In this document: positions 27,999-64,000 of the stretch, one piece after another
Numbering within the stretch: the stretch's first letter is position 1
How the letters are laid out: each line of letters begins with the position of its first letter
Assembly (NCBI RefSeq): GCF_963678975.1
Contig: NC_089279.1
Coordinates: forward strand, 35,793,933 to 35,857,932
Reading direction: 5' to 3'
DNA length: 64,000 nt
Origin: Dysidea avara
Taxonomy: Eukaryota; Porifera; Demospongiae; Dictyoceratida; Dysideidae
Position numbers and translations under genes: made by a program
The notes under the pieces: generated by a model
Seen by the model: only the letters and a program-made list of their open reading frames with translations
Databases searched by the model: none
Told to the model about the DNA's origin: nothing

Positions 27999-28719
27999 AT
28001 GGGAGCTAATACTGTATTACTTTTAGACACTTTGTACAATAATGACAGTGTTATTAGAGCTACCAGTAAGGTGATGTCAGATAGTGAACTAGTAGTGGAG
28101 TCTCTGGAGACAACAGTTGATCATATTAACAAATACAACAAAGTTGTACAATATGGTACTACTACCTGGTGTTGTGTTGTGATGAGTGTTGGTATAGCAG
28201 CAATTTTGTGGACATGTTTGATATGCTGTGGTGTATTAGGACTATCATTATTTGGTGTACTAATCTTGCTGGCAGGACTGACGTACATGGAAGTAGGAGT
28301 AGTAATTCCAAATAAAGTGGAAAGATATCTGAATAATGAAGTGACAAAAATGGTAGAAGACAAGTTGCTACTTCAAGTAAAGCAACTAAAGGTGTCCATG
28401 GAGTTAGAAACAGTCTCAACTATCACTTTAGCAATCAATGGTGGTGGTACAGTAATATCAGTTTATCAACTACAAATCTTATAAATCTTTACAAGATACC
28501 ATCAAAGCTGCCAACTTGCTGAAATCTAAAATCTGCTCTAAATTCATCTTACTAAGACAGAAAAGAGATATTGAGAAAAGATATCAAAAAATTTCCAATA
28601 AGTTGTTGCCGATAAAACAAACATTAAAAGGTATGAAGATTTCAGCGCAACTACTGGATATTGACATTAAAGAAGAATACTACCGATTTGTTGTGTCTCA
28701 GAACTTACTAACTGTATAG
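27999..28719 (+). pseudogene. Membrane-hairpin family gene A, frameshifted
   Basis: Single exon. The first 161 codons carry the family pattern: DTLYNNDSVIRATSK, SELVVESL, VDHINKYNKVV, then two adjacent hydrophobic helices (about residues 58-102), then VEDKLLLQVKQLK. Against the fragment at 57225, four extra bases lie near 28465 and shift the frame to an early stop at 28484. The remainder continues open in the other frame to the stop at 28719 with KSKICSKFILLRQKRD and a C-terminal helix. The promoter is intact, so a 161-aa hairpin-only product remains possible. Function unknown. Confidence 0.75.
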
Positions 28720-29519
28720 CTTATAATAATATAATTTATTTTGATATTAATTTTATATGGTTTTGCTGTTGTTATATGTTTTGACTGTTTTATTAGAATG
28801 TTTTCAGCCCCTCTCGAAAAAAGAATAATTTTGGAAAATAAGGCTTAAGCTTGATAAGGACACTGTATTGTTAATTTATCTTATAACATGTCAATCAAAC
28901 TAATGCACATGTAGGCTCACACAACCAACCTGTACACACATCACTGGAAGGCAGTCAACACTTGTGGTCACACAGTATAGTAATGTATAGGTATCATGAG
29001 GGTTAGGGTTTTCCTGTCCAAAAATATCACCCACATCCCAGCTTTTGCGACGACTAGTTTATATCCAAGTGATGTGTAATTGTCAGCTTTGTACACATGT
29101 ACATGTTATATACTGACACTGCATTTTGAATGCCATTATTGCAACATTATTTTGGTGTTTAGTTGCTGCTGTGCACACAATAAACACTTTTCTTATCAAA
29201 GACAACAATTAGCACCTTATAATAATGGACTGCAGTATGGCAGATATTACCTATCATGCAAATCTTTGAAGCATATATGGCTTCACTGGCATACAAGTTG
29301 CTATATCCATGAATCATGATTATACGGTATAGTAATAAAGTATATGCATGGCATGGTGTTCCAAAGTAGGGATTTTCCCCATAATGCATACTTTGTTATA
29401 GCTACCATCATTCATATCTTTTGTTTCAACCTGTTACACTTCTCCATCAGTTCCCAATAGCTGGTTAGCCATGAACTGGAAGATGCACTATAAAAAATTA
29501 TTTTGGACTTGATGAGCTC
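28720..29519. other. 3' flank shared with the 57.7-58.7 kb flank; no gene
   Basis: TTTTATTAGAA, CAGCCCCTCTC and ACATGTCAATCA recur in the same order near 58450-58680, so gene 3' flanks were duplicated with the genes. No other feature seen. Confidence 0.5.
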
Positions 29520-29720
29520 CTGATTTCACTACTGCCACAATACTCACTAATTTTGTGTAGTGACGTTCATATGCACTACTTTTGTAGTGATTTTCACTTC
29601 GTTGTTGTAGTAACCCTCACTACATAGTAGTGAATGTCACTACACAAAAATAGTGAGTATTGTGGTAGACATTAGTGGTGATCTTCACTACATTTAGTAG
29701 TGACCTTCACTAATTTGTTT
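29520..29720. mobile_element. Foldback repeat of CACTA/TAGTG units
   Basis: CCACAATACTCACTA on the left pairs with TAGTGAGTATTGTGG on the right, with further internal CACTAC/GTAGTG pairing. Non-coding. Confidence 0.7.
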
Positions 29721-30490
29721 TTATTGTGTAAAGCTACTTATCTTTTTATTGCTGGAACTATTCTTCATTTAATATTTTTTATTGTACCCAATATAAATTG
29801 TATTGAATAGATGTATACTTATCAGGGGTGCATGGATCCAGACTTTTTGAAGGGGAGGATCAAAATGAAATGAAACTACAGGAAAGGTATACCTTAGTGC
29901 ACAAGCATGCCAGCCTAGGCAGTTGAGTTAAGAACGGTTGTATACGATCAATGGACTGGACTGGTGGACTGGACTCAGTTTTTTTTCTCCTTTTTCACCA
30001 AATATTGGCCAACTGGCTATTGTTTGTTATATAGAATATGCTAATCTTATGAAGTACTCCCACCTGCACACACAGACACAAAAAAGCAGTGTAGCTATGC
30101 CAGCATTGCCCAGCTGCAGCTATACAGGGTGTATGTACCACCTACCAATGGATGGAATTGCAAGACAGTCACTTAATTTTGCTGACTCTGAAGACCATTG
30201 CTTGTATTAGGACACATGGTTATTATATAGCTAAACATTTACTGTACGATTTTATACTCCATGATAAGAATGGTAGTCATGCATGACTCTCTGGAGATCA
30301 TGCTATGAAAGAAATGTTTGACTGTAGAACAGATGAGTATACACTTTCATTTAAACACAATGATGTAGTTAACAACTGTCTCTTTCAAGATTGATTGGCA
30401 AAATTAATGATACTTGCTCATTGTGTTAATATGCACAGGTAGTGCAAAGTAGACAGGTCTATCTGTATATTCTACAACCAATTGCCCAAA
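29721..30490. other. No gene recognised
   Basis: AT-rich DNA; a frame at 29938-30210 has no family signature. Confidence 0.4.
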
Positions 30491-30707
30491 TATTAGGGGT
30501 GCGGTAATTATGCCGGAAAAATTTTCAGCACAATGCCAGAAGTCATTATTCTATAGCATTATGCCAGCATTTTGAAAGAATTATTAAAGATTTCATGAAT
30601 GAACAATTGATATACTCTAATAGAACAGTCACCAGATACTTTAGCTGCAAAAAGCTACCATCAGTATCTATCACAATGGATAAATTTCATAATAATGAAA
30701 AAATCAA

Positions 30708-31212
30708 CCGTTGCCCTTAGCAACCTAAATTTTAAATTATTTGTAGGTGTCGATGTCTTCAGTCACCTCTCCAAGTTTTAAAAGGATAGCATATAAATCA
30801 TGAGATATGACATTTTGAAGTTGCAATTTTCCCATACATTGTCAATGGGAGGGCTTCTTGGTATTCACACAAATCATTGGATTCATAGAATGTCATATCT
30901 TATGACCTATATACACTATCCATTTAAACCTTGGAGAGATTATTGTTGACATTCACACCTACAAATTATGTAAAATTGAGATATATGTACTTTAGAATTT
31001 TTGGTTTTTGCATATGTTGAAATACCTCATTTTGTGATTGCCTAGAAGGAGTAACTGTAACCCTCTCACACAGATATGTATGGGAAAACCACAAATTTCA
31101 AAATGTCATATCTTATGACATATATATGCTATCCTTTCAAAATTTGGAGATGTTACTTTAGATGTTATCACCTAAAAATAATGGAAAATTCAGGTTGCTA
31201 GGGGCAACAGCT
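30708..31212. mobile_element. Foldback element with internal third repeat
   Basis: Ends CGTTGCCCTTAGCAACC and GGTTGCTAGGGGCAACAG are inverted. Long inner arms contain ATGTCATATCTTATGA-type sequence; a third copy of that block lies between them near 30895 in the same orientation as the right arm. About 505 bp, non-coding. Confidence 0.8.
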
Positions 31213-31619
31213 ATTTCTATATACTATAAATACTTATTATGCCATACTCCCAAAACTCCCAACAGCCACCCTAAAACCCACAATTAAAGATATTTGAGTG
31301 TTGTATAAAAATGCACAGCTAGCTGTGCATATTATTATAAGTGGAAATCAAACAAAATTTCTTTAATACAAACATTTATTTTCTTTTGATTTTTCTATAT
31401 TGCTGTACACACCAAAATCTGTTAAATATACAAACCTTTCAAAATTCAGAGTTTACCAGCATTTTCAAGGGAAGTGCATTCTATGATCCTGTCTAGTGAT
31501 TACACCATTGTATTTGAGTACACATAACAGGTGTGTACTGTGCAGAGTTGTGGATCAGAGGGTAGCTGGAAACCCTGGCCTGGCCCATCAACTCTATAAC
31601 ATCAAAATCATGGTAGAGG

Positions 31620-32739
<1,120 letters not shown>

Positions 32740-32830
32740 TCAGACTAGTGTTGACCGATTACCACTTTTTAGGCAAAACCGATATCCGATTTACTGATAA
32801 TTAACCAATAACCAATTGTAGGTCTCTACA
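32740..32830. mobile_element. Half of a hAT-like element
   Basis: Contains GACCGATTACC, CCGATATCCGATTTACTGATAA as successive words typical of the CCGATA-rich elements at 48217 and 43621. No matching right end is seen. Confidence 0.35.
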
Positions 32831-33159
32831 AGTTACACTTGTGCATACTCCACTAAAAGTACAGCTAATGTGCACAAATGTAACTTGTACAAGTGTTGTG
32901 TGAGGTTTTATGCTTACCTCAACTCGAAGTTGCTAGTCAGACAAGTGGGCTAGGTCTCCAACCATCACTGCTAATAATTGTGATTACCACACCACATAAA
33001 CAAATTACCTAAGTACATTCCAGAGCCTTTGACATCAGCCCTCCAGTGATACTATAGTGGGCAATTGGAAACAGTGGAAATGGAAACTTGAAACGAAAAG
33101 TGGAAATGGGAAGTGGAAATGGTCAAATTGTCATAATTGCACCCAGAGTAAACCCTTGT

Positions 33160-33528
33160 TTAGTGGCCACGTCTTAAGACCAACCACCTTCTTACAAAGG
33201 CCACCTCCATACAAAGACCACATTGTAATTGCATTTCAAAGGCTAAGGCATACTTAATGACCCTATAAATAAGACCACTTCATGGTTACCTTTAATAAAG
33301 GCCACCCTCTTTACAAAGACCGCCTCTTCACATTGTAATACCAAACATCTATTTCATGGTTTTATCAAAATATGAATGATTCGAGTAAAACTCTCACTTA
33401 GGGGTCACCTCTTTACTTTTTGCAAAGACCACCTCTGTACAAAGACCACAGATTCTAAAGTATACTTAATAGTCTGATTAGATTACTTCATGATCACCTT
33501 TTAAAAGGAACATCTCTTTACAAAGACC
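33160..33528. repeat. Array of degenerate CCACCTCTNTACAAAGACC units
   Basis: Variants of GGCCACCTC..TACAAAGACCA recur at uneven 40-70 bp spacing and resume at 33910 after an inserted element. No coding signal. A GGAAATGG-rich stretch lies just upstream (33057-33120). Confidence 0.7.
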
Positions 33529-33909
33529 CAGTGGTATAACTAGCCTGGAAGCATTGGTTGGGCACCGTTGTATGTGTACAAGCTGCATCAACCAGCATGC
33601 TGCAGCTAGGGAGGTCTGGGGGCATGCTCCCCCTGGAAAATGTTTGAAAATTACAATGTTACATGCTGAGATTCAATTTGGTGGCATTTTACAGCTAAAA
33701 TTTGTCATCTCTAGTAAGACACTAGCTGTACGTACATTTTGTCTGCATAATAATTATTATTAGTTATCTGTAGGAGGCTTCATATTGCACCTCGTATCGC
33801 ACAATTTAGCTATAGCTAGCTACGTACAGTGAGTACCTGAGTTAGTAGGGTACTGTAACTGATTGGTTGGGCCTGTGCCCCACCAGTACCTACCTTAGCT
33901 ACACCACTG
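33529..33909. mobile_element. hAT-like MITE inserted in the CCACCTC array
   Basis: Ends CAGTGGTATAACTAG and TAGCTACACCACTG are inverted. CAAAGACC on the left and CAAAGGCC on the right form an 8-bp duplication with one mismatch. 381 bp, non-coding. Confidence 0.8.
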
Positions 33910-33939
33910 CAAAGGCCACCTCTGTAAATGGCAATATTG

Positions 33940-34925
33940 ATAAGTTCTATAATGTATTTCATGACTCATACAAAGGGGTCAATGTCATCTTCCATACTTT
34001 GGTACACACTTCACTAAAGTATCTGTTTTGTTTTTCTACCAGAATGTGTCATAGAAAAATAGTGAAGAGGATTGACTGTTTATTATTCTATGGTTAATTA
34101 TTGCAAATAAACAAGATATTTGATTGTTCTATAGAGTAGCATGCAAAAAAATAGGATTTATTGCTTTATTAGAGTAAATATATGTGAATGTTCTATTAGA
34201 GTATCTCGACCACTGGATGAGATTGCCATGACATAATACAACACAGACTACACAGTATACTAAAAAAAAGTTTGGAAGGTGGGATCCTCTTGACCCACCC
34301 CCAAAAATCTGCCATTGATTATAATTATGTACTAATTATAAAATTTAATCATGACATGATCTAGGTATTTTATTATGGCCTTTTGTGGGCTTCTTCACTA
34401 GCTACACCTGTACTTAATGCTGACCTAGCTACTTTACGTCTGATGTGGCCAGACTGGTTTTCTAGTCATTTCATCTGCAGGGAATGAGATGGTTATTGAG
34501 AATTCAAGTAATGCATTGACCCTTTACACCCTACCCATGACAGGGATACCATAATATGCAAGGCTATTTTTATTTGAGTGACTTACCACAATTGTTTAGA
34601 ATATTGATGACTCATTACTGCATGAGGTTAATAATTATCTCTTGATAATATGAACTCAATTCTAATCATGGGAGCAGTTTTTGATTGCTATATTAGAGTA
34701 GCTATCTCAACCCTTGTTAAGATTATCATGTCACTACAGCAGCTCAGCTGACATTATGGGCTTACTATAGTGCAACAATCAAATGTCAAGTCTCCTTTTA
34801 GAAAGCAATTAAAGTGATTTACGGGCTGATACAAAATGCAAACATATCTCTTCACCTCTTATGATTTGCTTTAGTAAGTTCAGTCTAGTCACGTACATCA
34901 AGGTACTCTCCAGCTCAGCACTTTC
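33940..34925. other. No gene; several CTATTAGAGTA motifs
   Basis: AT-rich DNA with motif copies near 34165, 34191 and 34688. No exon, RNA or transposon boundary supported. Confidence 0.45.
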
Positions 34926-34931
34926 CAACTA

Positions 34932-35129
34932 CAGTGGAACCTCTCTTAACAAACTCCCTGAATTAAGGATGCAATAGAAAAAATACCTCCATAATAAGGA
35001 CAAAAATGTTGGTCCCAACAGGTCTGGTTAATACATATTTTACCTCTAAAAGAGGAAACCTCTACATTATAGCAAAAAGTGGCCAAAAATTCTGGGTCCA
35101 AAAATGTCCATAATAGAGAGGTTTCACTG
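34932..35129. mobile_element. Tigger-like MITE, TA target
   Basis: CAGTGGAACCTCTCTTAA and ATAATAGAGAGGTTTCACTG are inverted ends flanked by TA on both sides; 198 bp. It lies about 70 bp past the stop codon of the minus-strand gene at 35198-35819. Confidence 0.85.
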
Positions 35130-35197
35130 TACATTATTAAACAGATATTTAATTCATTCTATTAAATTGAGTGATAAAAAGTGTGTGCACGTGTGTG

Positions 35198-35819
35198 TCA
35201 CATGTGTTTATGCTTTCTCTTGTGACTCTTATGCTACAGCGGAAGAAGAGCAATGGATGACCTCAGTATGTACCTCAACAGGGCTGCTCACCTGCTTCAC
35301 TTGCTTCTTGTGTTTTTTCTTATGTTTCTTCTTCACTTCAACAATCTCATCATCACTACTGTCACTAGACCCCTTGTTACCTGTTAACAATTACCACATG
35401 CTACACCAGTGTCTGCACTAGGGTGGTTATCTACCTTTAATGGCTGAAGGGAGGGCTGGCCCATAATGACTGGAAGATGTAGCAGCTACTGCAGGCTGTG
35501 TTTTGTTTGCTGGTGGAGTAAAAATCACCTTTTCAGGTATTTTGACTGTGTGTTGTACACCCATCCATGATAGCTTAGGTTCTGGAGTTTCTTGTGGTAA
35601 CTGTTTAGTTTCTGTTGCTAGCTTTGACTTATCATTAGTTTGTGTGGGATGGCTGGGTTGCCTAGTTACTAATTCCAATTGTTTGTTTGTTGGTTCGGGA
35701 GCTTCTGCAACTTTAGAAGGTCTGTCGTGTTTCTTCTTCGCTGGCTTCATCTTCACTGAGTTCGCTAGCGGAACTGTCTGTGAATATCGACTTGAACAAA
35801 TCCATCGAAGGTCTTTCAT
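35198..35819 (-). CDS. Lys/His-rich tail protein, three exons, about 169 aa
   Basis: Exons on the minus strand are 35435-35819, 35292-35380 and 35198-35233, with GT-AG introns of 54 and 58 bp and matching phases. The protein starts MKDLRWICSSRYS. It has a Pro/Thr/Lys-rich, probably disordered middle (PAKKKHDRPSKV, PSHPTQTNDKSK, SHYGPALPSAIK), then an acidic patch SSDSSDDEIVEV. It ends in a basic tail with KKKHKKKHKK and HKSHKRKHKHM. Such tails are common in nucleolar and RNA-linked proteins, including the ends of some USP36/42-like proteins; that link is weak and no catalytic domain is present. I do not recognise the family. A degenerate copy is at 13440-13900. GTG at 35823-35825 is in frame upstream, but ATG at 35819 is preferred. 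Confidence 0.7.
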
Positions 35820-35848
35820 CTTCACTGACCTGCAGATGACACAACCAG

Positions 35849-35862
35849 GTTTATATACCTTA
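35849..35862 (-). promoter_or_regulatory. TATA box of the Lys/His-rich gene
   Basis: GGTATATAAACC on the minus strand lies about 35 bp upstream of the ATG. The degenerate copy keeps the matching TATATAAA near 13936-13945, so the box was part of the duplicated locus. A CTGCAGGT word between TATA and ATG could also be a splice border. Confidence 0.5.
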
Positions 35863-35884
35863 TAGGCTACGATGTCTATCAGGT

Positions 35885-35943
35885 GCCTTTTTAGTGCAGT
35901 ACCACCAAGTGAATCTCATAGTCTCAAGGTCGCAAGGGGGAGC
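35885..35943 (+). pseudogene. tRNA-Met pseudogene
   Basis: Reads like tRNA-Met from GCCTTTTTAGTGCAGTA through CTCATAGTCTCAAGG, but the D arm is scrambled, the anticodon loop altered and most of the T arm (B box) deleted. It stands where copy A has the intact tRNA at 13970-14042. Confidence 0.85.
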
Positions 35944-37135: not shown

Positions 37136-37139
37136 ACTA

Positions 37140-38085
<946 letters not shown>

Positions 38086-38670: not shown

Positions 38671-38718
38671 AGTCAGTATAAATAGTTGTACACTGACTGA
38701 CTTCACCAGTTAGTGAAG
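38671..38718 (+). promoter_or_regulatory. Core promoter of hairpin-family gene B
   Basis: TATAAATA at 38677-38684 lies 53 bp before the ATG, overlapping the left arm of GTCAGTATA / TACACTGAC. A 6-bp-arm inverted repeat CTTCAC...GTGAAG follows at 38701-38718. Upstream, CACACACTACACTA and AAGTGTTGATGGTACC are shared with gene C. Confidence 0.85.
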
Positions 38719-38729
38719 GAGTTACTATA

Positions 38730-39437
38730 ATGGCAACTACTCCAGATCATGTTGAAGAGTTTGTAGACACTTTGTACAATAATGACAGTGTTATTAGAGC
38801 TACCAGTAAGGTGATGTCAGGTAGTGAACTAGCAGTGAAGTCTCTGGGGACAACAGTTGATCATATTAACAGATACAAAAAAGTTCTACAATATGGTGGT
38901 AGAGCCTGGAGTTTTGTTGTATCCAGTGGAGGGGTAGCTGCCATTCTATGGACATATATATTTGCCTTTGATGTATTAGGCCCATTATTAGGTGCAGCAA
39001 TCCCACTGTGTGTGTTGTTTTGTATGGTATTAGGATTAATGGTAATACCAATGATAGTTGAAACATGGTTGGATAACAAGGTGATGGAAATGGTAGACAA
39101 CAAGTTGGCTCCTCAAGTAAAGCAACTACAAGCTTCCATCACAGAATTGCAAACAGTCTTGAGTTTTACAGTAGCTATCTCACATGTGGGTAGAGTTCTA
39201 GAATTGACACAAGAAAACTACCAGTATCTGAAATCTATACAAGTCACAGCTGTAGCTGTAAACTTGATGGCAACTAATATCTGCTCAATATGTGTATTAC
39301 TCAGAAAGAAGAGATGTCGGATAACTGAAAAGATTGCCAACAAGGTATTGCCACAGTTAAAACAAAAGTTTGAAAAAGTGAATGGTTCAGTACAACTGCT
39401 ACATGCTACAGTGAAACTTGTCACTTCACAGAACTGA
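38730..39437 (+). CDS. Membrane-hairpin family gene B, 235 aa, intact
   Basis: Single exon. Order: N-terminal helix with EEFVDTLYNN and VIRATSKVM; an amphipathic stretch with SELAVKSL and VDHINRYKKV; two hydrophobic helices with a tight turn (about residues 62-111, rich in Gly/Leu/Ile); a heptad-like stretch with NKVMEMVDNK and APQVKQLQASITELQ (about 112-145). A weaker hydrophobic segment with VAVNLMATNICSICVLL precedes basic RKKRCR (about 175-200) and IANKVLPQLKQ with a final helix. No signal peptide or catalytic motif seen. The first half repeats gene A; the TATA promoter is conserved. The shape suggests a protein that inserts a hairpin into a membrane. Function unknown. Confidence 0.88.
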   Translation: MATTPDHVEEFVDTLYNNDSVIRATSKVMSGSELAVKSLGTTVDHINRYKKVLQYGGRAWSFVVSSGGVAAILWTYIFAFDVLGPLLGAAIPLCVLFCMVLGLMVIPMIVETWLDNKVMEMVDNKLAPQVKQLQASITELQTVLSFTVAISHVGRVLELTQENYQYLKSIQVTAVAVNLMATNICSICVLLRKKRCRITEKIANKVLPQLKQKFEKVNGSVQLLHATVKLVTSQN

Positions 39438-42335: not shown

Positions 42336-42382
42336 GTCAGTATAAATACTTGTACACTGACTGACTTCACCAGTTAGTGAAG
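42336..42382 (+). promoter_or_regulatory. Core promoter of hairpin-family gene C
   Basis: TATAAATA at 42341-42348 is 58 bp before the ATG. It overlaps the left arm of GTCAGTATA / TACACTGAC; CTTCAC...GTGAAG follows at 42365-42382. The sequence is nearly the same as for gene B. Confidence 0.85.
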
Positions 42383-42398
42383 GAGTTACTATAATATA

Positions 42399-43556
42399 AT
42401 GGCAGCTACTCCAGATCATGGTGAAGAGTTTGTAGACACTTTGTACAATAATGTTATTAGAGCTACCAGTAAGGAGATGCCAGATAGTGAACTAGTAGTG
42501 GAGTCTCTGGGGACGACAACAGTTGATCAGATTAACAAATACAACAAAGTTGTACATGATATTGTAGCCTGGTGTAGTATAGGGCTGATTGGTAGTGTAG
42601 CAGTAATTCTCTGTACATTTCTGTTAGTCTTTAACATGGTACACTTATCATTTGGTACACTGGGAGGACTGGTGTATATCTTATTTGGAATATTAATTGT
42701 AGGCCAAGTTGAAACACCACAAGTAAGAGAGAGTGTGGAGGATAAGATGGCACCTCTAGTGAAGCAACTACAGGCGTCCATCATGGAGCTACAGAAATGG
42801 CTGACAGCTAATCTTGTTATACTTGAAGGATCAGTTGCAAAGTTACAAGCAAACAATGGACTACTCAGTGAGAATAGTAATGCTGTCAGGAAACTGATCT
42901 CAGATAGTGAACTAGCAGTGAAGTCTCTGGAGAGAATAGTTGATGATATTGACAGATACAATCAGTTTGTACACATTGGTAGACAACTAGGGTATGGTGT
43001 ACAGATAGGTGGAGGTGTGGTTGCAGTATTAGCGATTAAAGGATTGTTCATAGATGACATAACTGAATTTTTCATAGGAATCTGTATAATGGGAATGGTA
43101 TGTGGAACATCTCTCATGATGGTTGGAATGGCATTTATAAAAGTGTTTAACAATGAACTGTATTTTGAGACAAATAGAATTGTGGAACACCGAGCTGTTC
43201 CTCTACTAAAGAAATTACAAGGATCCATCAATGAGTTGAAGGCACAATGGAGAGGTGTGGCAGGGGTGTGTGCTACCTTGTGTGTTAATGCAGCCAATCA
43301 AATGACACAACTCAACTATCTCAATTCTCAGAACATGTCACCAACTACCAACACATCTGTTAAGTGGTTGGCAAATGTTTACCATTTAAGTTGGAAATTT
43401 GTCCACAGTAAGACAATTTCGACAGCAGAGCAGATTATAGAGCAGCTGCTACCATGGTTACAACAGCAGATAAAGTACCTGAAGAATGCTGAACAACAAC
43501 TGAATAAAATCACAACAATGACTAGTACAGACCAACTGAAGTGTTTTAGCTGTTAA
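42399..43556 (+). CDS. Membrane-hairpin family gene C, 385 aa, two hairpin units
   Basis: Single exon. Unit 1 (about residues 1-150) has EEFVDTLYNN, VIRATSKEM, SELVVESL, VDQINKYNKVV, a hydrophobic hairpin (about 58-104) and VEDKMAPLVKQLQASIMELQ. Unit 2 starts near residue 160 with AVRKLISDSELAVKSLE and VDDIDRYNQFV, a second hydrophobic hairpin (about 198-250) and VPLLKKLQGSINELK. The C-terminus has a further helix and IIEQLLPWLQQQIKYL. A linker of repeated Leu/Asn heptads joins the units. The whole gene is open and the promoter intact, so it is likely expressed. Compared with B it is a fusion or internal duplication. Function unknown; a membrane-inserting role is inferred only from hydrophobicity. 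Confidence 0.88.
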   Translation: MAATPDHGEEFVDTLYNNVIRATSKEMPDSELVVESLGTTTVDQINKYNKVVHDIVAWCSIGLIGSVAVILCTFLLVFNMVHLSFGTLGGLVYILFGILIVGQVETPQVRESVEDKMAPLVKQLQASIMELQKWLTANLVILEGSVAKLQANNGLLSENSNAVRKLISDSELAVKSLERIVDDIDRYNQFVHIGRQLGYGVQIGGGVVAVLAIKGLFIDDITEFFIGICIMGMVCGTSLMMVGMAFIKVFNNELYFETNRIVEHRAVPLLKKLQGSINELKAQWRGVAGVCATLCVNAANQMTQLNYLNSQNMSPTTNTSVKWLANVYHLSWKFVHSKTISTAEQIIEQLLPWLQQQIKYLKNAEQQLNKITTMTSTDQLKCFSC

Positions 43557-51038: not shown

Positions 51039-51881
51039 TCAACTTTCATTTAAAGTGGTTACAAGTTCCTCTTCTACAGACTTAAGATCAGTATTCTGTT
51101 GGGTTAAACATGGCAAAACGCGGCTATTGATTTGCGCTGCTGTTGGATGTTGTTCTCGTTTGACAATAGAAAATATTGAACCCACCAGTTTTACGGCACC
51201 TAAACCAGTAGCAATGCTAGCTGTTAGAACACCAATGGTTAGCATCACAGTTGGTACATGTTCTCCCAAAGCAGACCATATTTTTTTCACATATGCAATA
51301 ATATCTTGAGAGGGTGCTTGCATCTGTGCAAAAATAGCAGTGTTTGTATTGTTTGTATCACAGTGAGTAATACTTATTTCTACAGGATCAGCACACATGT
51401 CCCCTATTTCCTCTGATTTCACCTTTACTTCATTAATCGTGCCTTTCATTGATTCAATTGAAGGAGATACCACATCCAGTTTTTCCTTAACATATGAATT
51501 CATCTCATTGTCAGTACCATAAACTACAGCTGCCCCAAATGATGTGATTGCTATTCCACCAAATAAACAGACTGTTAACATTGTGGTACCTTTCACTGAT
51601 GGAAGGCTTTTATACACTGTCAAACAAGTTAGTATTCCTATTTTACTCCCAGTCACTGCACCAGCTCCAACAACCTGCATGCTATATCCAAATGCCTTCT
51701 TCAACTGGCTAATCTGGTACTGGCTGTTGATATCTTTTGCCGTTGTCATTAATAAAGGTGATATCCTCTCACTTTGTGAAACAACTTTATGTACACTGGA
51801 CAAAAGTCTGGAGCACTGAGCATGGCCATTCCTAGCACACCCGTGTCTAACTAATTTCCCTGCAACACTTAGTACACTCAT
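51039..51881 (-). CDS. Divergent membrane-hairpin family member D, 280 aa
   Basis: Single exon. The ATG at 51881 (MSVLSVAGKLV) is preferred over the in-frame ATG at 52019, because a TATAAAAG box lies about 40 bp upstream of it. TTAKDINSQYQI aligns with TTVDHINKYNKV of genes A and B. Then come two hydrophobic helices (about residues 70-118), VKEKLDVVSPSIESMKGTINEVK (same place as the VEDK..VKQLQ..ELQ stretch), a third hydrophobic segment (about 210-235) and basic KREQ, then INSRVLPCLTQQ matching IANKVLPQLKQ. Sequence identity is low but order and spacing are kept. It lies in opposite orientation to the other members and lacks their shared promoter sequence. Function unknown. Confidence 0.8.
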   Translation of the reverse strand: MSVLSVAGKLVRHGCARNGHAQCSRLLSSVHKVVSQSERISPLLMTTAKDINSQYQISQLKKAFGYSMQVVGAGAVTGSKIGILTCLTVYKSLPSVKGTTMLTVCLFGGIAITSFGAAVVYGTDNEMNSYVKEKLDVVSPSIESMKGTINEVKVKSEEIGDMCADPVEISITHCDTNNTNTAIFAQMQAPSQDIIAYVKKIWSALGEHVPTVMLTIGVLTASIATGLGAVKLVGSIFSIVKREQHPTAAQINSRVLPCLTQQNTDLKSVEEELVTTLNES

Positions 51882-51916
51882 TTCAAACTGGTAATGAAAT
51901 AAAAATGAGCTCTGCC

Positions 51917-51930
51917 TACTTTTATAAGAC
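51917..51930 (-). promoter_or_regulatory. TATA box of gene D
   Basis: CTTATAAAAGTAG on the minus strand, about 38-48 bp upstream of the preferred ATG at 51881. It falls inside the longer reading frame and so argues against the ATG at 52019. Confidence 0.6.
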
Positions 51931-52620: not shown

Positions 52621-52624
52621 TATA

Positions 52625-55735: not shown

Positions 55736-56330
55736 AAGATGATCCATGTGAAACCTTAGGGCAGTTTTACATACATGAGGCAACCGTGAAGTTCCACCTG
55801 TAACAAAGTAAGGGGTGGGGCACAGTTGCTAGTACTCCTTCCTGTAGTTTCTTTCTTTTCTTCCCTTCCTTGCTGTCTGGCCTGTTCTATTCCTTTCCTG
55901 TCCTCCAGTGATATCACGTTGAAGACAGAAACTTCTTTCCAAGAATGTGGCCCCTTCTTACAGCAATTAGTATATGATTTTTGTTACTACCGGCAACTGA
56001 TGACTGATCCAGTAAACTTGTGGAATGGCCAATAGTCCCGAGGCAGTGGTGGACACCAATACTTCTAATGAGAATAATAGTGATAAATGCCTAACAGAAT
56101 GTGTACAGAAACAGTTGTGCAAAGATACACCATAATAGCCATAGGATGTGGTTGCTAGGTCTATTGTGTGTGGTATGTGTTCTATTAGAGTAGTTGAATA
56201 TAATGGGCTCTGGGTCCCTTTTAGACAAACTGCAACAGATAGCTTCCGTATCAGTAGCTATATCTTACCATTCACATCGGTCACTTCAAACCCCATCATG
56301 CAGGTACCCAACAAAGTGTAATGTTAGAAG
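55736..56330. other. No gene recognised
   Basis: A CTATTAGAGTA motif lies at about 56180. Nothing else is supportable. Confidence 0.4.
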
Positions 56331-56405
56331 TTTAATAGGGTGTAGAAGATGTTCAACTGATCAGAAGCCCGAACTGAAGCTACTAACAGTTGAACGAGAC
56401 TAAAG

Positions 56406-56990
56406 ATGGATGGTGACTTGGAATTGAGACTAGAAATGGATGATGAACTATTAAGGGTCACACAATACAAGAAAAGCTGACAACCATGGAGCCCCCTCTT
56501 GATCAAGCGGGATGCATCTCCTGATGGAGAGACAATAGCAGATGTGTTTCAAATAGGGTCGAGTCAATGTAATACATGTAAAGAAGTTGCAGTTAAAGTT
56601 AAAATAAGTTTTCATGCAATGCCAAACATGCAAGATTTAATCAAAACGTTGAAGGAGATACGTGAACTTGAAACTGAACTTGACAAGGTTAGACTACAGA
56701 GAGGAACACTGTGTAGTAGCTGAAATTTTTACATCATTCCTAGGTTAACGCCAACAACAAGGAGATGTGTAAACACCACAAGAAAATGCTTGAGGAGATA
56801 GCCAAAACAAACCAACACACAAAATTACATTATGACAGTAAGTTGAGCACCATTTTTGTAATGAAAAATATCTCCTATCTGTAGTGGCACTTGACAAATT
56901 GCAATCAATCATTAATCGGGGAATATCTTCTGTGTCAGTATGGTGATGTGTATGAACTTTTTAAACTGATTTAATATGAAATTATTACTA
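56406..56990 (+). pseudogene. Coiled-coil/CxxC protein fragment (copy B)
   Basis: An ATG at 56406 reads MDGDLELRLEMDDELLR. Then, in a shifted frame, SPDGETIADVFQIGSSQCNT, CKEVAVKVKISFHAMPNMQD and LIKTLKEIRELETELDKVRL run open to a TAG near 56721. A later stretch ANNKEMCKHHKKMLEEIAK is in another frame. It matches 23779-24330 closely. The CNTCK motif could bind metal, followed by a coiled coil, but the family is not recognised. The frame change near 56475 argues for a pseudogene unless a short intron is present. Confidence 0.5.
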
Positions 56991-57224
56991 GTGTGAAAAT
57001 TTTAAAGGCATACAAGTCAGTATGTAAAACTGCTCTAGGACTAGACGCCAAGTACACAGTATCAAGAAATATCTCAATAGTGTACAGTAAAGGGTCCAAG
57101 TATTAGTTTGGCCACATTATGTGACTATTATTTTCTCCTAGTTGTCACAGCCTATAGTGTGCTTAGACTGGGACCTAATACCTAACCATGTGGTAGTGTG
57201 GTTGCTAGGTGTTAACCACAACTA

Positions 57225-57650
57225 GGAGTAGTAATTCTAAGCAGACTTGAAAGATGGCTGAACAGCAAGGTAACAAGTATGGTAGAAGATAAGTTGGTAC
57301 TCCTAGTGAAGCAGCTACAGACATCCTTCACAGAGTTGGAAACAGTTTCAACTATTTCAGTAGCAATCAATGGTACGGATACAGTGGTATTTTTAAAACA
57401 TCGATCTTTCAAATCTTTACAAGATACAATCACAGCTGCTAACTCACTGGAAACTAGGATGTGTTCCAAATGTATTTTACTCACTTAGAAAAGACATCTT
57501 GAGAGCAGACATCAAAAGTTTGTCAACAAGGTGTTGCCATGGCTAAAACAGAAGTTAGAAGATGTAAAGACTTCAGCACAACTACTAGATGTTGAGGTGA
57601 AAGAAGAATACTTCAGATTTGCTGCTTCACAGAACTTACTAACTGTATAG
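57225..57650 (+). pseudogene. Membrane-hairpin family fragment E
   Basis: Begins abruptly at GGAGTAGTAATTC, matching gene A from about 28284, so promoter, N-terminus and hairpin are missing. VEDKLVLLVKQLQTS, TELETVSTISVAING and SFKSLQDTITAANSLE are readable. Unlike gene A it has no 4-nt insertion, but a TAG interrupts CILLT where gene A has CAG. The end AQLLDVEVKEEYFRFAASQN and stop at 57648-57650 are kept. Confidence 0.85.
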
Positions 57651-58025
57651 CTTATAACAATACTATAAATGTTTATATATTTTCCTGTTATTGTTAATAA
57701 GACATTTGCTCATTGTATTAATAGTTTTTGTGTGTGTATGTGTGTGTGTGGGCAAGTGGGTAAGACAATCTCACTCCTTGTATTCATAGGCTTTAGTAAG
57801 TGACCAGAAAACATTTCCCGTCATCCACTGACATACCAATTGAACAGTCAGCTGCTCTATGCAACCAAAACTAAATGAAGCATTATATGGGTTCATATGC
57901 ACCTAGCATTAAATGTCTTTGTCATCTGTATGGAAAGAAACGTAACTGTTTTATTAAAATAATTGGTGCATTGTCTGTTTCTGGAGTAATAAATAGTTTA
58001 GTCATTAATATAATAATAACCACTT
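57651..58025. other. 3' flank of fragment E; short GT tract
   Basis: GTGTGTATGTGTGTGTGTG lies near 57730. No gene seen. Confidence 0.4.
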
Positions 58026-58148
58026 GCCCGCCTTTCACAAGCATGAAATGGTTGAGGTGAGGGGAGGGGGCTAACCAGAGTATAGTATCTCTGGGGGCAC
58101 ATAGCACCTCAACCATAAACTATTATGCTTGTCCTATAAAAGGCGGGG
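58026..58148. mobile_element. Short MITE with CCCGCCTTT ends
   Basis: CCCGCCTTTCACAAGCAT pairs with ATGCTTGTCCTATAAAAGGCGGG, and ATGGTTGAGGTG with CACCTCAACCAT further in. About 123 bp, non-coding. Confidence 0.75.
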
Positions 58149-58715
58149 TATACAAAAGACTTCATACTTGGTAACAACTTTGTTGAAGAGTGCTTTTCGT
58201 AGCTTCATTGAAGAGAACTTGCTGTTTGTGGACATATCTATAATAAGGCAGGATATACAAGACAAAGGAAGAGTGTTTTTGTAGCGTTGAGAACTTCATA
58301 CATCATAAATAAAAACAGCTTTCACACATGGAACATGGGAAGAGATACAAGTGTCAAAAGAGGAGTGAGTAAATTAACACTCCTGCAAAATCAGTTTGCT
58401 TTTCACTTTAGACTATAATTATATCTTAGGGTAACATTGTTGAATGCTTTATTAGAAAGTTTTTATAATAGTTATATGTTTTCAGTCTCTCCAAAAGGGT
58501 AATTTTAGCAATCTTATTCCAAGGAGGGTTATGAGCCCCCCCTCCTTGGAGTGGGGCTTGAGCCCCTTAGCTCCCCTTTACCATTGCCTATGCTCACAAG
58601 TGAAGGTGATAGGAATAAGGCAAGATTATGTTGGCCTGATAGGGACACTACTGCTGACCATTATCTAAACATGTCAATCAGAATAACAATTAGGTCAGAT
58701 GAAAACACCCTGTAT

Positions 58716-58896
58716 GGCTCACACAACCAGTCAGTGTGGCTCACACAACCAGCCAGTGTGGCTCACACAACCAGCCAGTGTGGCTCACACAACCAGCCAG
58801 TGTGGCTCACACAACCAGCCAGTGTGGCTCACACAACCAGCCAGTGTGGCTCACACAACCAGTGTGGCTCACACAACCAGCCAGTGTGGCTCACAC
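58716..58896. repeat. 22-bp minisatellite, about eight units
   Basis: GGCTCACACAACCAGCCAGT-type 22-bp units in direct tandem; one unit is shortened. Gene A's 3' flank near 28914 has one single-unit equivalent (GGCTCACACAACCAACC), so the array expanded after duplication. Confidence 0.95.
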
Positions 58897-59082
58897 ATGC
58901 AGCATTTTCAGTACATAGTACTGCAGTGATGTAACTATTTTGATAATTGTACATACATACAGTTAGGTCCAGTCAGATACAGTAAGTATGCTGCTAATAG
59001 TACAGTAGTATCAAGTGTTAACTTTATAATGGTGTCACATGAGCATCGTTAGATGACTGCCACACACATCTGATCTGGCAAA

Positions 59083-59835
59083 TCATTTAGGACAGTTAGA
59101 CCATGTGCGGACATGCGACTTTTCACCTGTGTGAGTGTGCATGTGGGTTTTGAGGTTGTAGCTTTGACTGAAGCTTCTCTTACAGACTTAGCATTCAAAT
59201 GGTGGGATATAGAGGAGGTCAGTATGCATGTGAGCCCAATGGTTTTGTACTGAAAAGTGTACTGGGCCTCCTTGGGTGCTGAAATATCTCCCAATTGATG
59301 AAGTATGACAAGTACAGCACAATAAGCCCCGTTAAGCCCCACCGAATAGGTTAGTTTTTTTTAAAACTTGGGCTATGTATAAATCACATGAGATCTCATG
59401 CCAGGCCACGGATGCAGTAAATGTCTTTGTTGATGAGCTAGAAAGACAGAGAGGAGTCTCACTCGATAAAACAGTATGAATAAACACTGAAGAAGTCATC
59501 CTATGCAATGTACTTCACTAAGACGCTTGTGGCGTGCGCCCTATTTGGGGATCACATGAGACTAGAAAGATGAAGAAAGCCTCCAGACAAACGATAGTAA
59601 CAACTGGCCACCACGAAGAAGGTTAGAAATCAGTGAAGTACCTCACGGCCACTATTCAATGTTGCTGCCCTCCTTCAATGCTATATCCCACCTTACAAAA
59701 TGCAATTAGCACAAAAAAAATTTGTAGTGCTTATTATGCTTCCAACCTCTTCTGGGTCAGATATCAGTGTACTTTCTCAGGTGTCTTCCTAGCTGGTGTG
59801 ATCGTGAGTATCTTTTTCCACATTCCTCATGGTCA
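59083..59835 (-). pseudogene. WT1-like zinc-finger fragment (copy B), split by a transposon
   Basis: Matches 19188-19385 in two pieces, 59083-59209 and 59764-59835, separated by the Mutator-like element at 59210-59754. THTGEKS.. and the CKRSF-like finger are readable on the minus strand with stops. Both copies share dead positions, so the gene was probably broken before duplication. Confidence 0.65.
59210..59754. mobile_element. Mutator-like MITE, 545 bp, in the zinc-finger fragment
   Basis: Ends TAGAGGAGGTCAG and CCAACCTCTTCTG correspond to those of 47349-47895, as does internal TTTTGTA(C/T)TGAAA near the left end. GGTGGGATA (59201-59209) and GGTCAGATA (59755-59763) form a 9-bp duplication with two mismatches. 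The uninterrupted zinc-finger copy at about 19300 is the empty site. Confidence 0.85.
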
Positions 59836-60337
59836 CAGACTTTTTAACTGTACTGTGGACAATTATGTGGCAATTCAGCAGGTTATTATAGCTTTAATTA
59901 AATACCTAACTGGGATACATACTGACTAAATGCTTGTGACACAATTCACTGACCCTCTGTGGTACACGGTGCTTTATTGTCCTCACCTCCAACATGATAA
60001 ATGTACTGCTAGGAGATATGGTCATCTTAATTGTGGTAGCTCCTTGGTAGCATCAACACATTGGCAAAGTACTCAACCGAGTGAGACTGCTGAACATGAG
60101 GATTGCCAGGAATGTTTGTATGTCATGCCAGCATCACTTGGTTCTGGGAAGACAAAGTCAAGGACGGGCTGAACTTGTTGGGACATAAAACGTTAGCAAG
60201 AAACATCAGGTTTGCTTCACTAGCAGATGGTAAATATTCACTCGCTGGTGGTCAATGAGGTGTAAAAGATGTTCATGATACAAGTATTGTGGACAAACAT
60301 CATCACAAGGAGACAATGTGTGGATGGAAAAGATCAA
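59836..60337. repeat. Duplicated block matching 19386-19905
   Basis: Same order of words as 19.4-19.9 kb (GGCAATTCAGCAGGTTATTA, CAGCATCACTTGGTTCTGG, GGTCAATGAGGTGTAA). No gene seen. Confidence 0.75.
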
Positions 60338-61104
60338 CAAGAACAATAGGAATTGTAAGTTCAATTAGGGACCATGGAAAAAAGTAGGGAAACAAGAGAG
60401 GTTGCCTACACCTGCAGATATACTAGTAGACATTTAATGCCTACTTCAATTACTTGTTTGTTTATTTTTTTGTAACATTTAAGTGGCCATCATGCTTCCT
60501 TTCAGCTCATTATACACAGTGCTACAAATGAAGAACAGTAGGAGAAGCGCCTCTACAATCAATCCAGTTACCGTGAAGAATACGGACGATTCACATGTCC
60601 CAACTATCCATTACTGACTCAAAAGTAAGGTCCATTACAGAAAATACGGATGATTCTCATTTACAAATGTACAGAAGCCATGCATCGTGCTACCACAAAT
60701 CAGTACCTTGGTGTGTTAGCATAAAGAAATGGAGGACAAAAGTAAGTTCATGATGTGGGTGTTGTATGTACAGCGGTATGCTAAAAGGCACATCTCGGGA
60801 TGAAGCAACATCAAACAGTGAAAAAAAAACAAGCCCATAGCCTTAGCTGTTATTGAGTTATGCTTGCCTGAAGGCATCAGGAAAACAGGCAGTTAGTCGG
60901 TAGAAAATTCCATTGAATAATTATTTTTTCAATTTTGTAACAATCTATTGGGGTTGTACTGAAGGTAATTTGGGTTTGGTTATACCTAACCATGCAATAC
61001 TGCCAAGGCACCAGAATGGTATTGTGAAGCTGGTTTTAGGGTGATTTTTTGGCAAGAAAACTCAAACCTCCATGTTACCTAATATACAGTACGGTACTGT
61101 ATGA
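60338..61104. mobile_element. Dispersed repeat R1, copy with defined boundaries
   Basis: Inserted into the duplicated block: 19901-19910 (ATCAATATCA) is uninterrupted where copy B has about 767 extra bases between GATCAA and ATCAAAG. This fixes the extent of the element whose relatives lie near 8749, 20860, 37140, 41018, 44460 and 46319. TAGGGACCAT near the left end and a complementary ATG..ACCTA near the right suggest short inverted ends. No coding capacity. Confidence 0.75.
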
Positions 61105-61573
61105 CATCAAAGAAAGGTATTTACCTAACCTGGCTGGGAATTGTAAGGATACTATAAAAGTGACTTACTGATTAGTACAGTGATTTGGACAGGATTTAGC
61201 CTAAAACCATGGTTTACATTAATAAACTAACCATGCCTATTGCATAATTTAGGCAAACTCCACCTGATAACCACAAGTAGCAAACTAAGATCATAGTTTA
61301 TTGGATTGCAACATCAGCAATACCAGTATGTGATTGGACAGATCTGTATCAACTATATTAAGGAATAGCTACTTACCATAATCAAAGACTGATTGATGCA
61401 ATGTTTACCATTACACCAATAGAGCTACAAACATCACAACTCACCTCTGTCTCACTGGTTGTCAATCTAACAGTTAGTTGTGATGGATGGTATCAATTAT
61501 AGACAGGTGGCTGGTAACTGCACCTACATACACAAAGGATGGGACTAAGTTTGAGTGTATCTAGCTACAATTA

Positions 61574-61802
61574 CAGTGAACCTCAGTTATCTGAACCCCT
61601 TGGGACCAGGGGTGGTACATAAGTCTCAAAAGTCCATATCTTTGAAATTGTGTATAAAATAGCATAAAGAACATTTTTTTTAAATTTCGGTATTATTAAC
61701 TACCCTAATAGAACATTCACCACTCTAATAAAGCAGTCATTTCCGTAATTCAGTCAACTGAAAATTTGGATAAATGGGGCCTGGATAACTGAGGTTCCAT
61801 CG
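61574..61802. mobile_element. pogo/Tigger-like MITE (copy B of 24529-24756)
   Basis: Same element at the same place as in copy A, flanked by TA. Its right end is mutated (CCATCG for CCACTG). Confidence 0.85.
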
Positions 61803-63913
61803 TAACATCCTATTATGTTGGCTGTGCTTACCCAAGCGTGGGTGTAAGATTGGCTTAATTGGGAAACATTGGGCAGTCCACAGTGACAAAGGTTAATGTT
61901 ACAATGTCAGGCTGGAAATAACAAGTTTACAATAACAGGTACAAGTTTATTACAGCAAATTTAAATTCAGGCTATTAGTTTCACTGCGCCAAATTTTCTG
62001 AAAATTTTAAGCTTTACATCATAGTAGACACACATACACACACAAACAAGAATATGGAACAACATAGATACAATGAGCATATCACGCAGTACAGATACAT
62101 TGCTAAATTAGGCAAAAGGCATGGCTATTATATTAATGTTTCAGGACTTAAATTAACGTGTGGTCAGTGAACTATTTCCTGACAAAAACAACCACAGAAT
62201 TAAGTATATGCACAGAAAAAAATTCTGTGTGTAAGAGACAGAGTTCTAGGTTTACACTTTCAGAAAAATGTACTGTTTGTTACATAAAATGATTACACTA
62301 GCTAATCCAGTTGCTAGAAACAATTTAGGTTAGGTGTTTCACCAGACCCTCACTAGGGCAGGCAGCACCAGACTACTACAAATTCCAACCCGTTGCGGCC
62401 TAGAGTGGGTAGGGCATGACATTGACAAGTGCATTATCATATAGGAAGGAGACACAGACATATTTTCGACAAGGTAGGTCAGTGTATAAAATGCATTCAT
62501 CAAATTATTTAGAGCTATCTAACAAGTAGTATTTGTATACAATGTAATGACAACAACCATTAATCTTACATAGCAATTCCTATACATGTTTGAGCTATGT
62601 ACTTAGCGCAAAGTGGCGCCTAGCTGCATGGTTGGCAAGTCTTCGAGCACGCAAGCTGTCTTGAAATGACTTTGTTCTTAGTTCCTTCTTATTTCTGTAA
62701 TCAATTTGTGAACAGTTTGTATGAAAATTCATTTTTCACTGGCCAGTATTTGAGTCCCGTACCGTGCGTTTGCCAACTAGTGGGATATGATAATACTCTT
62801 TGTAGTGGTAACACAGCTACTTCAAATTAAATGGTAGTAGTGTAATTATAATTTTTAAACAGGGGTCCACTCAGTAACCAAAATAATACTGATTTAAGTG
62901 GAGCCCTGTGAGCAAAAGGAGAAGAGTACAAAACACAAATACCATATGTCTACTTCTTAAGTCTCTCGCGGGACCAAACCCTCCTGTTATGGTACGTATA
63001 CCCAATAACCCAAGCTAGGCATAATAACTGGGCTAGTAGACTAGAAAGGTCTGGTCACGCGAGATCATTGCACGAGATTGTACCACTTTACAAGCTTACC
63101 GCATAAACACCGCCTTGTCATTCGCCTCCTTTTCCCTCCCTGTGTTCGACCATAGGACAAGGTATTCGCCCAATATTGGCTAGTGAACCTCGTGGTGAAA
63201 TACAACATAAGACCTACACGCTTATCAAAATCAATACCGGTATTCCATTATTCGTCGTCAATTATGTGCGCTTAATTGTGCCATAGCTTAATTAGACCAT
63301 CATGAGTCTATGATTACAGTGAGATTGTGGTTCATACGGGTAAGGGTACAGCCTGTATAACCTGAAGCTAGTTTTTTAAGTGACTAACAGTTGTGTAGAC
63401 TATGTAATGGAGAATTGAAGCCGGGAAAAGCCCAGCCAGTCTCTGCCTGGATCAAATCGACAGCAGCTACTGGATTGTCGCAAAGGTAGAAGAACGAGAA
63501 CCACATAAACATCTAATGGTGAGCGTAATAATTATGCACAGTGTAGTCTCGAATAATACAGGTGTACAGGTCGTGCATTTTTACGCATGCGTACTACTGC
63601 AAATAGTTTCATACTAAAGGGCAAGTAAATTTTTGCCTACACTTATCATATAATGCTTTATCTTGATAGAATGCATGAGTACTTGCAAGATCACGTTTAC
63701 ATTTGTTAGCTACACAGTGACTTTATTAAGGTGGCTACATTAGACAGGTCACTACATGCAAGCTGTCACACTAAGAAAACTTCAAGAAGTGATGACTAAT
63801 GGAACACATTCCAACACAGATGACAAGATCAAATGAAAAAAAAAATTTCCTATTGAATGTTATAAAGTTCTCAATTAACACCTCTTGTCTGTCCAGCCCA
63901 GTCAGCTACACTA

Positions 63914-63960
63914 GTCAGTATAAATAGTTGTATACTGACTGACTTCAATAGTTAGTGAAG
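63914..63960 (+). promoter_or_regulatory. Core promoter of hairpin-family gene F
   Basis: Identical in layout to gene A: GTCAGTATA / TATACTGAC around TATAAATA (63919-63926), then CTTCA...TGAAG. Confidence 0.85.
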
Positions 63961-63973
63961 GAAGAGCTGTAAT

Positions 63974-64000
63974 AATGGGAGCTAATACTGTATTACTTTT
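63974..64000 (+). CDS. Membrane-hairpin family gene F, first codons only
   Basis: ATG at 63974 opens MGANTVLLL, identical to gene A. The window ends here, so whether this copy is intact cannot be seen. Confidence 0.8.

What the first reader, a model, noticed from the sequence alone, without database searches (positions are those of the whole stretch)
27999..64000. Clustered family of single-exon membrane-hairpin proteins with no recognised relatives
Six members or fragments lie within 36 kb (28.0, 38.7, 42.4, 51.9 minus, 57.2, 64.0 kb). Shared motifs in order: DTLYNN, VIRATSK, SELxVxSL, VDxINxYNKV, a Gly-rich hydrophobic hairpin, VEDKxxxxVKQLQxSxxELQ, a weaker hydrophobic segment with basic residues after it, and VLPxLxQ. 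Copies are intact, duplicated internally, frameshifted or truncated: the birth-and-death pattern of fast-evolving effector, immunity or recognition genes. The shape recalls hairpin-inserting proteins such as apolipoprotein L, but I see no sequence proof.
Basis: partly seen in the sequence, partly recalled or inferred. Interest (0 to 1): 0.85.

Follow-up and report, generated by a model that had tools for sequence, protein, structure and literature searches.

The report
Divergent apolipoprotein-L-like gene cluster
A tandem cluster of fast-changing membrane-hairpin genes in a simple animal, probably a sponge, looks like a distant branch of the apolipoprotein L family, which in vertebrates includes membrane-inserting immune proteins.

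Summary
In detail: six family members or fragments lie in the window, four with intact frames and two broken. The cluster runs on to C8:35.93 Mb (16 places) as two tandem 36-41 kb units and a partial third; 12 further places lie elsewhere in the genome. They look like real genes: 12 of 14 upstream regions tested hold a TATA box 45-58 nt before the ATG, and 10 of 11 older paralogue pairs show dN/dS 0.38-0.68. Half of the cluster's copies are broken: birth-and-death. "No recognised relatives" does not hold. No window protein hits Pfam ApoL, but distant members on other chromosomes link the family to the genome's own ApoL genes (sub-threshold Pfam hits on both exons, hhalign 95.5%, profile searches mostly above reversed controls). 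The ApoL order of parts is kept; the channel-gating Asp, kept in 5 of 6 genome ApoLs, is not. Best reading: a weakly constrained, lineage-specific ApoL-like branch of membrane-inserting proteins, one type with two fused domains, probably innate-immune or stress effectors or regulators. Function is inferred. The animal is non-bilaterian; its assembly statistics resemble the demosponge Dysidea avara.

The parts
27999..28716 (+). w28: N-type single-domain member, frame broken near 28470; its relatives w64 and B64 (L029, L030) are intact
27943..27949 (+). TATA box (TATAAAT) 56 nt before the w28 ATG
38677..38683 (+). TATA box (TATAAAT) 53 nt before the w38 ATG
38730..39437 (+). w38: intact N-type single-domain gene, 235 aa; hydrophobic segments at residues 91-109 and 172-190, basic RKKR after the second
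42341..42347 (+). TATA box (TATAAAT) 58 nt before the w42 ATG
42399..43556 (+). w42: intact two-domain gene, 385 aa (N-type domain fused to C-type domain)
51039..51881 (-). w51: intact C-type gene, 280 aa, closest to the full-length member L051 (C8:35927641-35928516)
51920..51926 (-). TATA box (TATAAAA) 45 nt before the w51 ATG
57219..57683 (+). w57: truncated copy with stops inside; its duplicate is C8:35892268
63975..64000 (+). w64: first codons of an intact N-type gene that runs on to C8:35858623
24631..28716 (.). early part of tandem unit A, repeated from 61677 to the window end and beyond as unit B

Best explanation
The cluster is a lineage-specific, fast-evolving branch of the apolipoprotein L superfamily in a non-bilaterian animal. 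The genes are intronless and have their own TATA promoters. Each domain is built from helices: amphipathic helices, a Gly-rich hydrophobic hairpin (where ApoL has its membrane-insertion hairpin), a helical stem, in some members a second hydrophobic segment (where ApoL has its pore-lining segment), and an amphipathic Leu-rich tail. Most likely these proteins insert the hairpin into cellular or microbial membranes as inducible innate-immune or stress effectors, or as partners of the genome's canonical ApoLs. Because they lack the pore-lining acidic residue, they probably do not make pH-gated cation channels; membrane remodelling or modulation of other ApoLs is likelier. Shown: the family, TATA boxes at a fixed distance, older purifying selection, tandem units, remote ApoL link, lack of the acidic residue. 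Inferred: membrane insertion, immune role, inducibility.
For: Homology chain: w38 to w42C (2e-14) to w51 (1.6e-6); w51 to L051 (7e-33); L051 to two-exon genes on C10 and to C8:10.14 Mb, whose C4 relative is 80% identical. Of 5 pieces of such distant members scanned in Pfam, 3 have ApoL first: exon 2 on C10 (profile 109-185, E 0.004) and C4 (119-185, E 0.003) and exon 1 on C10 (68-103, E 0.0045), collinear. hhalign of the C-type plus intermediate profile against six genome ApoLs: 95.5%, score 68.1; 80 column shuffles at most 17.8, reversed 42.5. hmmsearch over 277 ORFs: that profile finds ApoL L001 at 39.6 bits (reversed 26.5) and L005 at 31.4 (reversed 18.6); the ApoL profile finds both C10 exons at E 3e-4 to 1e-3 with reverses at E above 5 or not listed; the intermediates' profile finds L051 at 36.2 bits (reversed 3.3). 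Genuine ApoLs are in this genome, 7 matches over the Pfam cut-off. TATA boxes. Selection. In mussel, Apolipoprotein L heads a list of top non-shared hemocyte transcripts (PMC4581086, table passage).
Against: No cluster protein hits Pfam ApoL: 0 of 4 window proteins at E 10, 0 of 8 members at E 1, not among the 25 of 39 families shown for 7 members at E 10. A window-only profile against ApoL gives 41% (score 37.7; reversed 27.5), and the hairpin half alone is hardly better than its reverse (44.8 against 42.1), so that hairpin similarity could be composition. The ApoL profile scores L051 below reversed L051 (14.7 against 17.4 bits), finds the C4 and C8:10.14 pieces only at E 0.1-0.2 and window frames only at E 0.16 or weaker; the family profile scores ApoLs L006 and L007 about like their reverses, L003 at 1.9 bits and does not list L004. 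The channel acid is lacking. No RNA evidence. AlphaFold models are weak (pLDDT 61 and 56) and Foldseek of the w51 model found nothing at E 0.001.
Confidence: 0.7

Rival explanations
1. The family is unrelated to ApoL; a helix-hairpin-helix membrane protein arose separately and the profile match reflects shared hydrophobic and amphipathic composition.
For: The hairpin half hardly beats its reversed control; the direct ApoL-to-L051 score is below its reverse; no direct Pfam hit for the window proteins; other marginal Pfam hits of like strength exist, such as Neurensin 8e-4 for w28 and Dam1 1e-3 for L012.
Against: The C-terminal half alone links to ApoL (39.7 against 23.7 reversed, shuffles at most 16.6); both exons of the C10 intermediate hit ApoL collinearly; several profile hits clearly beat reversed controls; one divergent member, L052, has Asp at the ApoL pore position and the intermediates have Asn.
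Confidence: 0.15
2. The cluster is a graveyard of decaying duplicates with no function.
For: 8 of 16 cluster places are broken or split by my reading; recent copies show dN/dS near 1 or too few changes to tell.
Against: 10 of 11 older pairs have dN/dS 0.38-0.68 (one 1.00), 9 of 11 with p under 0.05, pairs overlapping; a TATA box sits at a like distance even in a member on another chromosome; long open frames remain at 48-58% identity.
Confidence: 0.1
3. The proteins are recognition molecules (allorecognition) rather than membrane effectors.
For: Tandem, copy-rich, fast-evolving cluster.
Against: No hydrophobic leader near the start of w38, w51, L029 or L051 by hydropathy and no receptor domain in the window proteins; the ApoL tie points to lipid-facing helices.
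Confidence: 0.05

Closest known systems
Apolipoprotein L family (Pfam PF05461; human APOL1-6)
   Same: Order of parts: helical N-terminal part, Gly-rich hairpin, helical stem, later hydrophobic segment (in some members), Leu-rich amphipathic tail; profile-profile match through intermediates; tandem clustering, as human APOL1-4 form a gene cluster (PMC8358165 passage).
   Different: Pfam score not reached; pore acid (human D348) absent at the aligned place; two-domain fusions; intronless frames with TATA boxes.
Canonical ApoL genes of this same genome (C1, C5, C10, C11, C15; L001-L007)
   Same: Hairpin and C-terminal segment with a similar short motif and then a Leu-rich tail; largely single open frames.
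   Different: They score 35-60 bits to PF05461 and 5 of 6 compared have Asp at the pore position; of the distant relatives of the cluster, L052 has it too.

Membership tests
ApoL (PF05461) | Pfam gathering score (25.9 bits) | tested here: not met
   0 of 4 window proteins at E 10, 0 of 8 cluster and related members at E 1; 3 of 5 pieces of distant members at 16.9-17.6 bits, 2 of 5 no hit
ApoL (PF05461) | Homology detectable by profile-profile comparison | tested here: met
   95.5%, score 68.1; 80 shuffles at most 17.8, reversed 42.5, for C-type members plus intermediates; the window-only profile gives only 41%
ApoL (PF05461) | Hydrophobic membrane-insertion hairpin in the middle of long helices | tested here: met
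   Hydropathy; two long helices around it in low-confidence models; insertion itself not tested
ApoL (PF05461) | Pore-lining segment with the gating Asp (D348, conserved in APOL1-6, PMC8358165 passages) | tested here: not met
   alignment read by eye: Asp in 5 of 6 genome ApoLs, Asn in the sixth and in 3 of 3 intermediates, Asp in L052; at that column L051 S, w51 G, L024 A, L012 S, w42C W, L011C S, w38 V, L029 K. Several of these have no strong hydrophobic segment there, so the column is less sure for them
ApoL (PF05461) | C-terminal leucine-zipper-like amphipathic tail | tested here: met
   C-terminal half (C-type plus intermediates) aligns to ApoL on its own, 73%, score 39.7 against 23.7 reversed; alignment; heptads not scored
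ApoL (PF05461) | Four-helix N-terminal core (PMC8316464) | tested here: inconclusive
   N-terminal part short and models too weak; a passage of the paper says that ApoL6 cannot form it either
ApoL (PF05461) | Membrane insertion or channel activity | not testable with these tools
   needs a bilayer or liposome assay

The most novel reading that the evidence does not exclude
A non-bilaterian animal has diversified its own ApoL-like branch into an inducible arsenal of hairpin-inserting proteins, including double-domain fusions without the channel-gating acid. That would mean ApoL-type membrane attack or remodelling is an ancient animal immune strategy with lineage-specific arms races, as in primates.
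Probability: 0.35. Interest if true: 0.65.

Novelty: new variant of a known kind. Interest (0 to 1): 0.42.

Why it matters
ApoL proteins are known mostly from vertebrates through trypanosome lysis and APOL1 kidney disease. A divergent, tandemly expanding ApoL-like branch beside canonical ApoLs in a non-bilaterian animal would suggest that the family's birth-and-death evolution is old in animals. It also offers natural variants without the pore-gating acid for separating membrane insertion from channel function. It shows that annotation by the Pfam cut-off alone would miss this branch.

Tried and rejected
PDB sequence search with the C-type profile: best E 0.53, nothing useful. Foldseek of the w51 model: 523 matches at E 10, none at 0.001; the 50 shown are an assortment of helical proteins (designed bundles, SMC arms, receptors, TTYH2, and also the alpha-pore formers SmhB and ClyA), all insignificant; not used. 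The w38 model was not searched. Marginal Pfam hits (Neurensin, Dam1, DUF948, SesA, TRIM_CC) were rejected: each fits a short stretch of one or a few members. The listings of seven paper searches for ApoL in sponges, cnidarians or other invertebrates show no description of this family; the one paper holding both Dysidea avara and apolipoprotein is a pharmacology review (listing only). PMC12248677 was opened for passages and not used. The genome-size phrase search found nothing. A census of canonical ApoLs with L001 as query did not complete.

Errors of mine, corrected: two of six ApoL rows (ap2, ap6) were translated from wrong coordinates; one search repeats the test with right rows and only its numbers are used. 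One search stopped at one of these rows; one search finished the work, and only the rows that one search printed before the stop are cited from it. In the tree one row was out of frame; one search repeats the tree. One search stopped before its last pairs; one search has them.
Full report
WHAT IS THERE. The window lies at C8:35793933-35857932 of a 550.8 Mb, 108-contig genome. Six family members or fragments are confirmed: w28, w38, w42, w51, w57, w64. w42 is an internal duplication: w38 matches its first half (E 1e-30) and its second half (2e-14). w64 starts at 63975 and is intact beyond the window (L029). The motifs DTLYNN and VIRATSK mark an N-type domain (w28, w38, first half of w42, w64); w51 and the second half of w42 are C-type. 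A domain tree of 19 rows groups the N-type rows (99/98) and the second half of w42 with its C8:34.59 and C10 relatives (97/92); several long branches, w51 among them, make deeper forks unsure. The two-domain form is old: C8:34.59 Mb (58% identical) also has both domains in one 353-aa frame, the first incomplete at its start.

GENOMIC CONTEXT. The cluster runs to C8:35.93 Mb. Units of 36-41 kb are repeated in tandem. Fetched pieces of unit B match unit A in the window at 94.5-99.5% over stretches of 0.9-4.2 kb, with offsets of about 36.0-36.2 kb and then 41.1 kb; a third, partial unit follows (start of unit B inside the window). The jump of about 4.95 kb is an insertion in the unit-B copy of w51. 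It has inverted termini, a 7- or 8-base flanking duplication and two long frames without a Pfam match at E 0.01, which I read as a DNA transposon. Merging by hand gives 28 places, a lower bound: 16 in the cluster (8 intact, 8 frameshifted, truncated or split by my reading) and 12 elsewhere (C8 34.59, 16.56, 10.14; C10 17.22 twice; C10 30.07-30.09 three times; C6 16.51 twice; C4 23.06; C5 32.60).

ARE THEY GENES? A TATAAAW box lies 45-58 nt before the ATG in 12 of 14 upstream regions (about 0.1 expected per 160 bases from the window's plus strand); the two without it are L024 and the two-exon gene L071. Several of the 12 are recent duplicates; as separate lineages they are the w28/w64 group, the w38/w42 group, w51, L051 and L012, the last on another chromosome. 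Between w28 and w38 the last 75 bases before the ATG agree at 61 of 72 aligned positions, whereas bases -160 to -76 hardly align (20 of 29 aligned, 141 columns); synonymous divergence is 0.44. dN/dS (NG86): of 11 older pairs taken (w42-L011 0.65, w42-L012 0.62, w28-w38 0.68, w38-L029 0.57, w42N-w38 0.55, w42N-w28 1.00, w42C-L011C 0.58, w42C-L012 0.60, L011C-L012 0.62, w51-L051 0.42, L076-L072 0.38), 9 are below 1 with Fisher p under 0.05; w28-w38 (p 0.08) and w42N-w28 (p 1) are not. The last two of the list have synonymous divergence of 1.65 and 1.19, near saturation. L076-L081, of middle age, gives 0.46 (p 0.003). Pairs overlap, so they are not independent. By Fisher's test young pairs cannot be told from 1: w42-L009 8.5 nonsynonymous and 0.5 synonymous changes (ratio 4.87, p 0.21, though its bootstrap interval of 1.66-7.30 lies above 1), w42-L010 1.05, L009-L010 1.17, w38-L026 0.65, w38-L027 1.46, L026-L027 0.87, w38-L028 0.81, w28-L029 0.43, w28-L030 0.46, L029-L030 2 and 0 changes. 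Reading: real, weakly constrained, fast-evolving genes with frequent death of copies. No transcript data were available.

RELATIVES. Window proteins do not hit ApoL in Pfam (4 at E 10; 8 cluster and related members at E 1). The link is indirect. w51 leads to L051 at C8:35.93 (E 7e-33), a full-length member with a clear Gly-rich hairpin. L051 leads to two-exon genes on C10 (exon 1 E 3e-5, exon 2 E 0.005) and to C8:10.14 Mb (2e-4), and back (0.003). In Pfam, 3 of 5 such pieces have ApoL first: exon 2 on C10 (17.1 bits, profile 109-185; DUF6861 close behind), exon 2 on C4 (17.6, 119-185), exon 1 on C10 (16.9, 68-103); all are under the 25.9 cut-off, and the C8:10.14 and C6 pieces have no ApoL hit. 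Profile-profile: C-type plus intermediates against six genome ApoLs 95.5%, score 68.1, aligned from the hairpin to the C-terminus; 80 column shuffles at most 17.8; reversed 42.5. C-type alone 91.7%, 56.0 over 46 columns (reversed 40.4). Intermediates alone 85.6%, 47.4 (shuffles at most 33.6, reversed 27.7). C-terminal half 39.7 (reversed 23.7). Hairpin half 44.8 (reversed 42.1), so not informative. Window-only profile 41%, 37.7 (reversed 27.5, shuffles at most 19.2). In a search of 277 ORFs the family profile finds ApoL L001 (39.6 bits; reversed 26.5), L005 (31.4; reversed 18.6) and L002 (14.1; reverse not listed), but L006 (15.6; reversed 13.2) and L007 (15.8; reversed 19.5) score about like their reverses, L003 gets 1.9 and L004 is not listed. 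The ApoL profile finds the C10 exons at E 3e-4 to 1e-3 with reverses at E above 5 or not listed; the C4 and C8:10.14 pieces reach only E 0.1-0.2, window frames 0.16 or weaker, and L051 (14.7) is below its reverse (17.4). The intermediates' profile finds L051 (36.2; reversed 3.3), w51 (13.2; reversed 3.7) and ApoL L007 (17.9; reverse not listed). Together I put descent from ApoL at about 0.85. Canonical ApoLs are in the same genome: 7 matches over the cut-off.

ANATOMY AND MECHANISM. Hydropathy shows the hairpin region and, in w38, w51, L051, L024 and L052, a later hydrophobic segment before the tail; w42C, L011C, L012 and L029 have none above the threshold at that place. AlphaFold models from alignments of five window sequences (pLDDT 61 and 56) give two long helices and no reliable fold. 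In human APOL1 the fourth hydrophobic segment lines the pore; D348 sets pH gating and cation selectivity and is conserved in APOL1-6 (PMC8358165, passages). At the aligned place 5 of 6 genome ApoLs have Asp and one Asn; 3 of 3 intermediates have Asn; L052 has Asp; the eight cluster and related rows have S, G, A, W, V or K (alignment read by eye). I infer membrane insertion without APOL1-type gating. [quoted passage not shown] an Apolipoprotein L heads a list of top non-shared hemocyte transcripts in a mussel (PMC4581086, table passage), and one was enriched under salt stress in oyster (PMC3595286, passages). Intronless TATA genes are often quickly inducible (general knowledge). Hence the proposal: inducible membrane-active immune or stress proteins, or modulators of the canonical ApoLs.

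ORGANISM. A nuclear copy of mitochondrial COX1 reads TGA as Trp, with AGA/AGG at Arg and ATA at Ile places that I recall as conserved. That code fits sponges, cnidarians and placozoans rather than bilaterians (recalled). The published Dysidea avara assembly has 575 Mb, 15 chromosomes, 162 scaffolds and N50 41 Mb (PMC12909245, passages), close to this genome; the species is not proven. A term search of that paper's main text finds no apolipoprotein.

VERDICT.

Noticed in passing
26217-26921: Long inverted repeat (346-nt arms, 86% complementary, 13 nt apart) that yields similar ORFs of 125 aa on both strands; probably a palindromic mobile element; no Pfam hit at E 0.01 for the plus-strand ORF.
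   Followed up: partly
5032-10019: Ankyrin-repeat frames, probably exons of one gene, upstream of the cluster.
   Followed up: partly
L049 and L050 (unit-B copy of w51): About 4.95 kb insertion with inverted termini and a 7- or 8-base target duplication; two frames of 383 and 413 aa with no Pfam match at E 0.01: possibly an undescribed DNA transposon family.
   Followed up: partly
37630-37882: Nearly pure GGCA tetranucleotide array, 63 copies at 99%; also a 208-bp TG array at 31621 and a 22-bp minisatellite at 58715.
   Followed up: no
1568, 13970, 14402, 36215: Four tRNA genes in 64 kb by Rfam.
   Followed up: no
G000 C1, C2, C3, C5, C8, C13 and others: Many nuclear copies of mitochondrial COX1, 21 matches, one nearly full length on C8.
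   Followed up: partly
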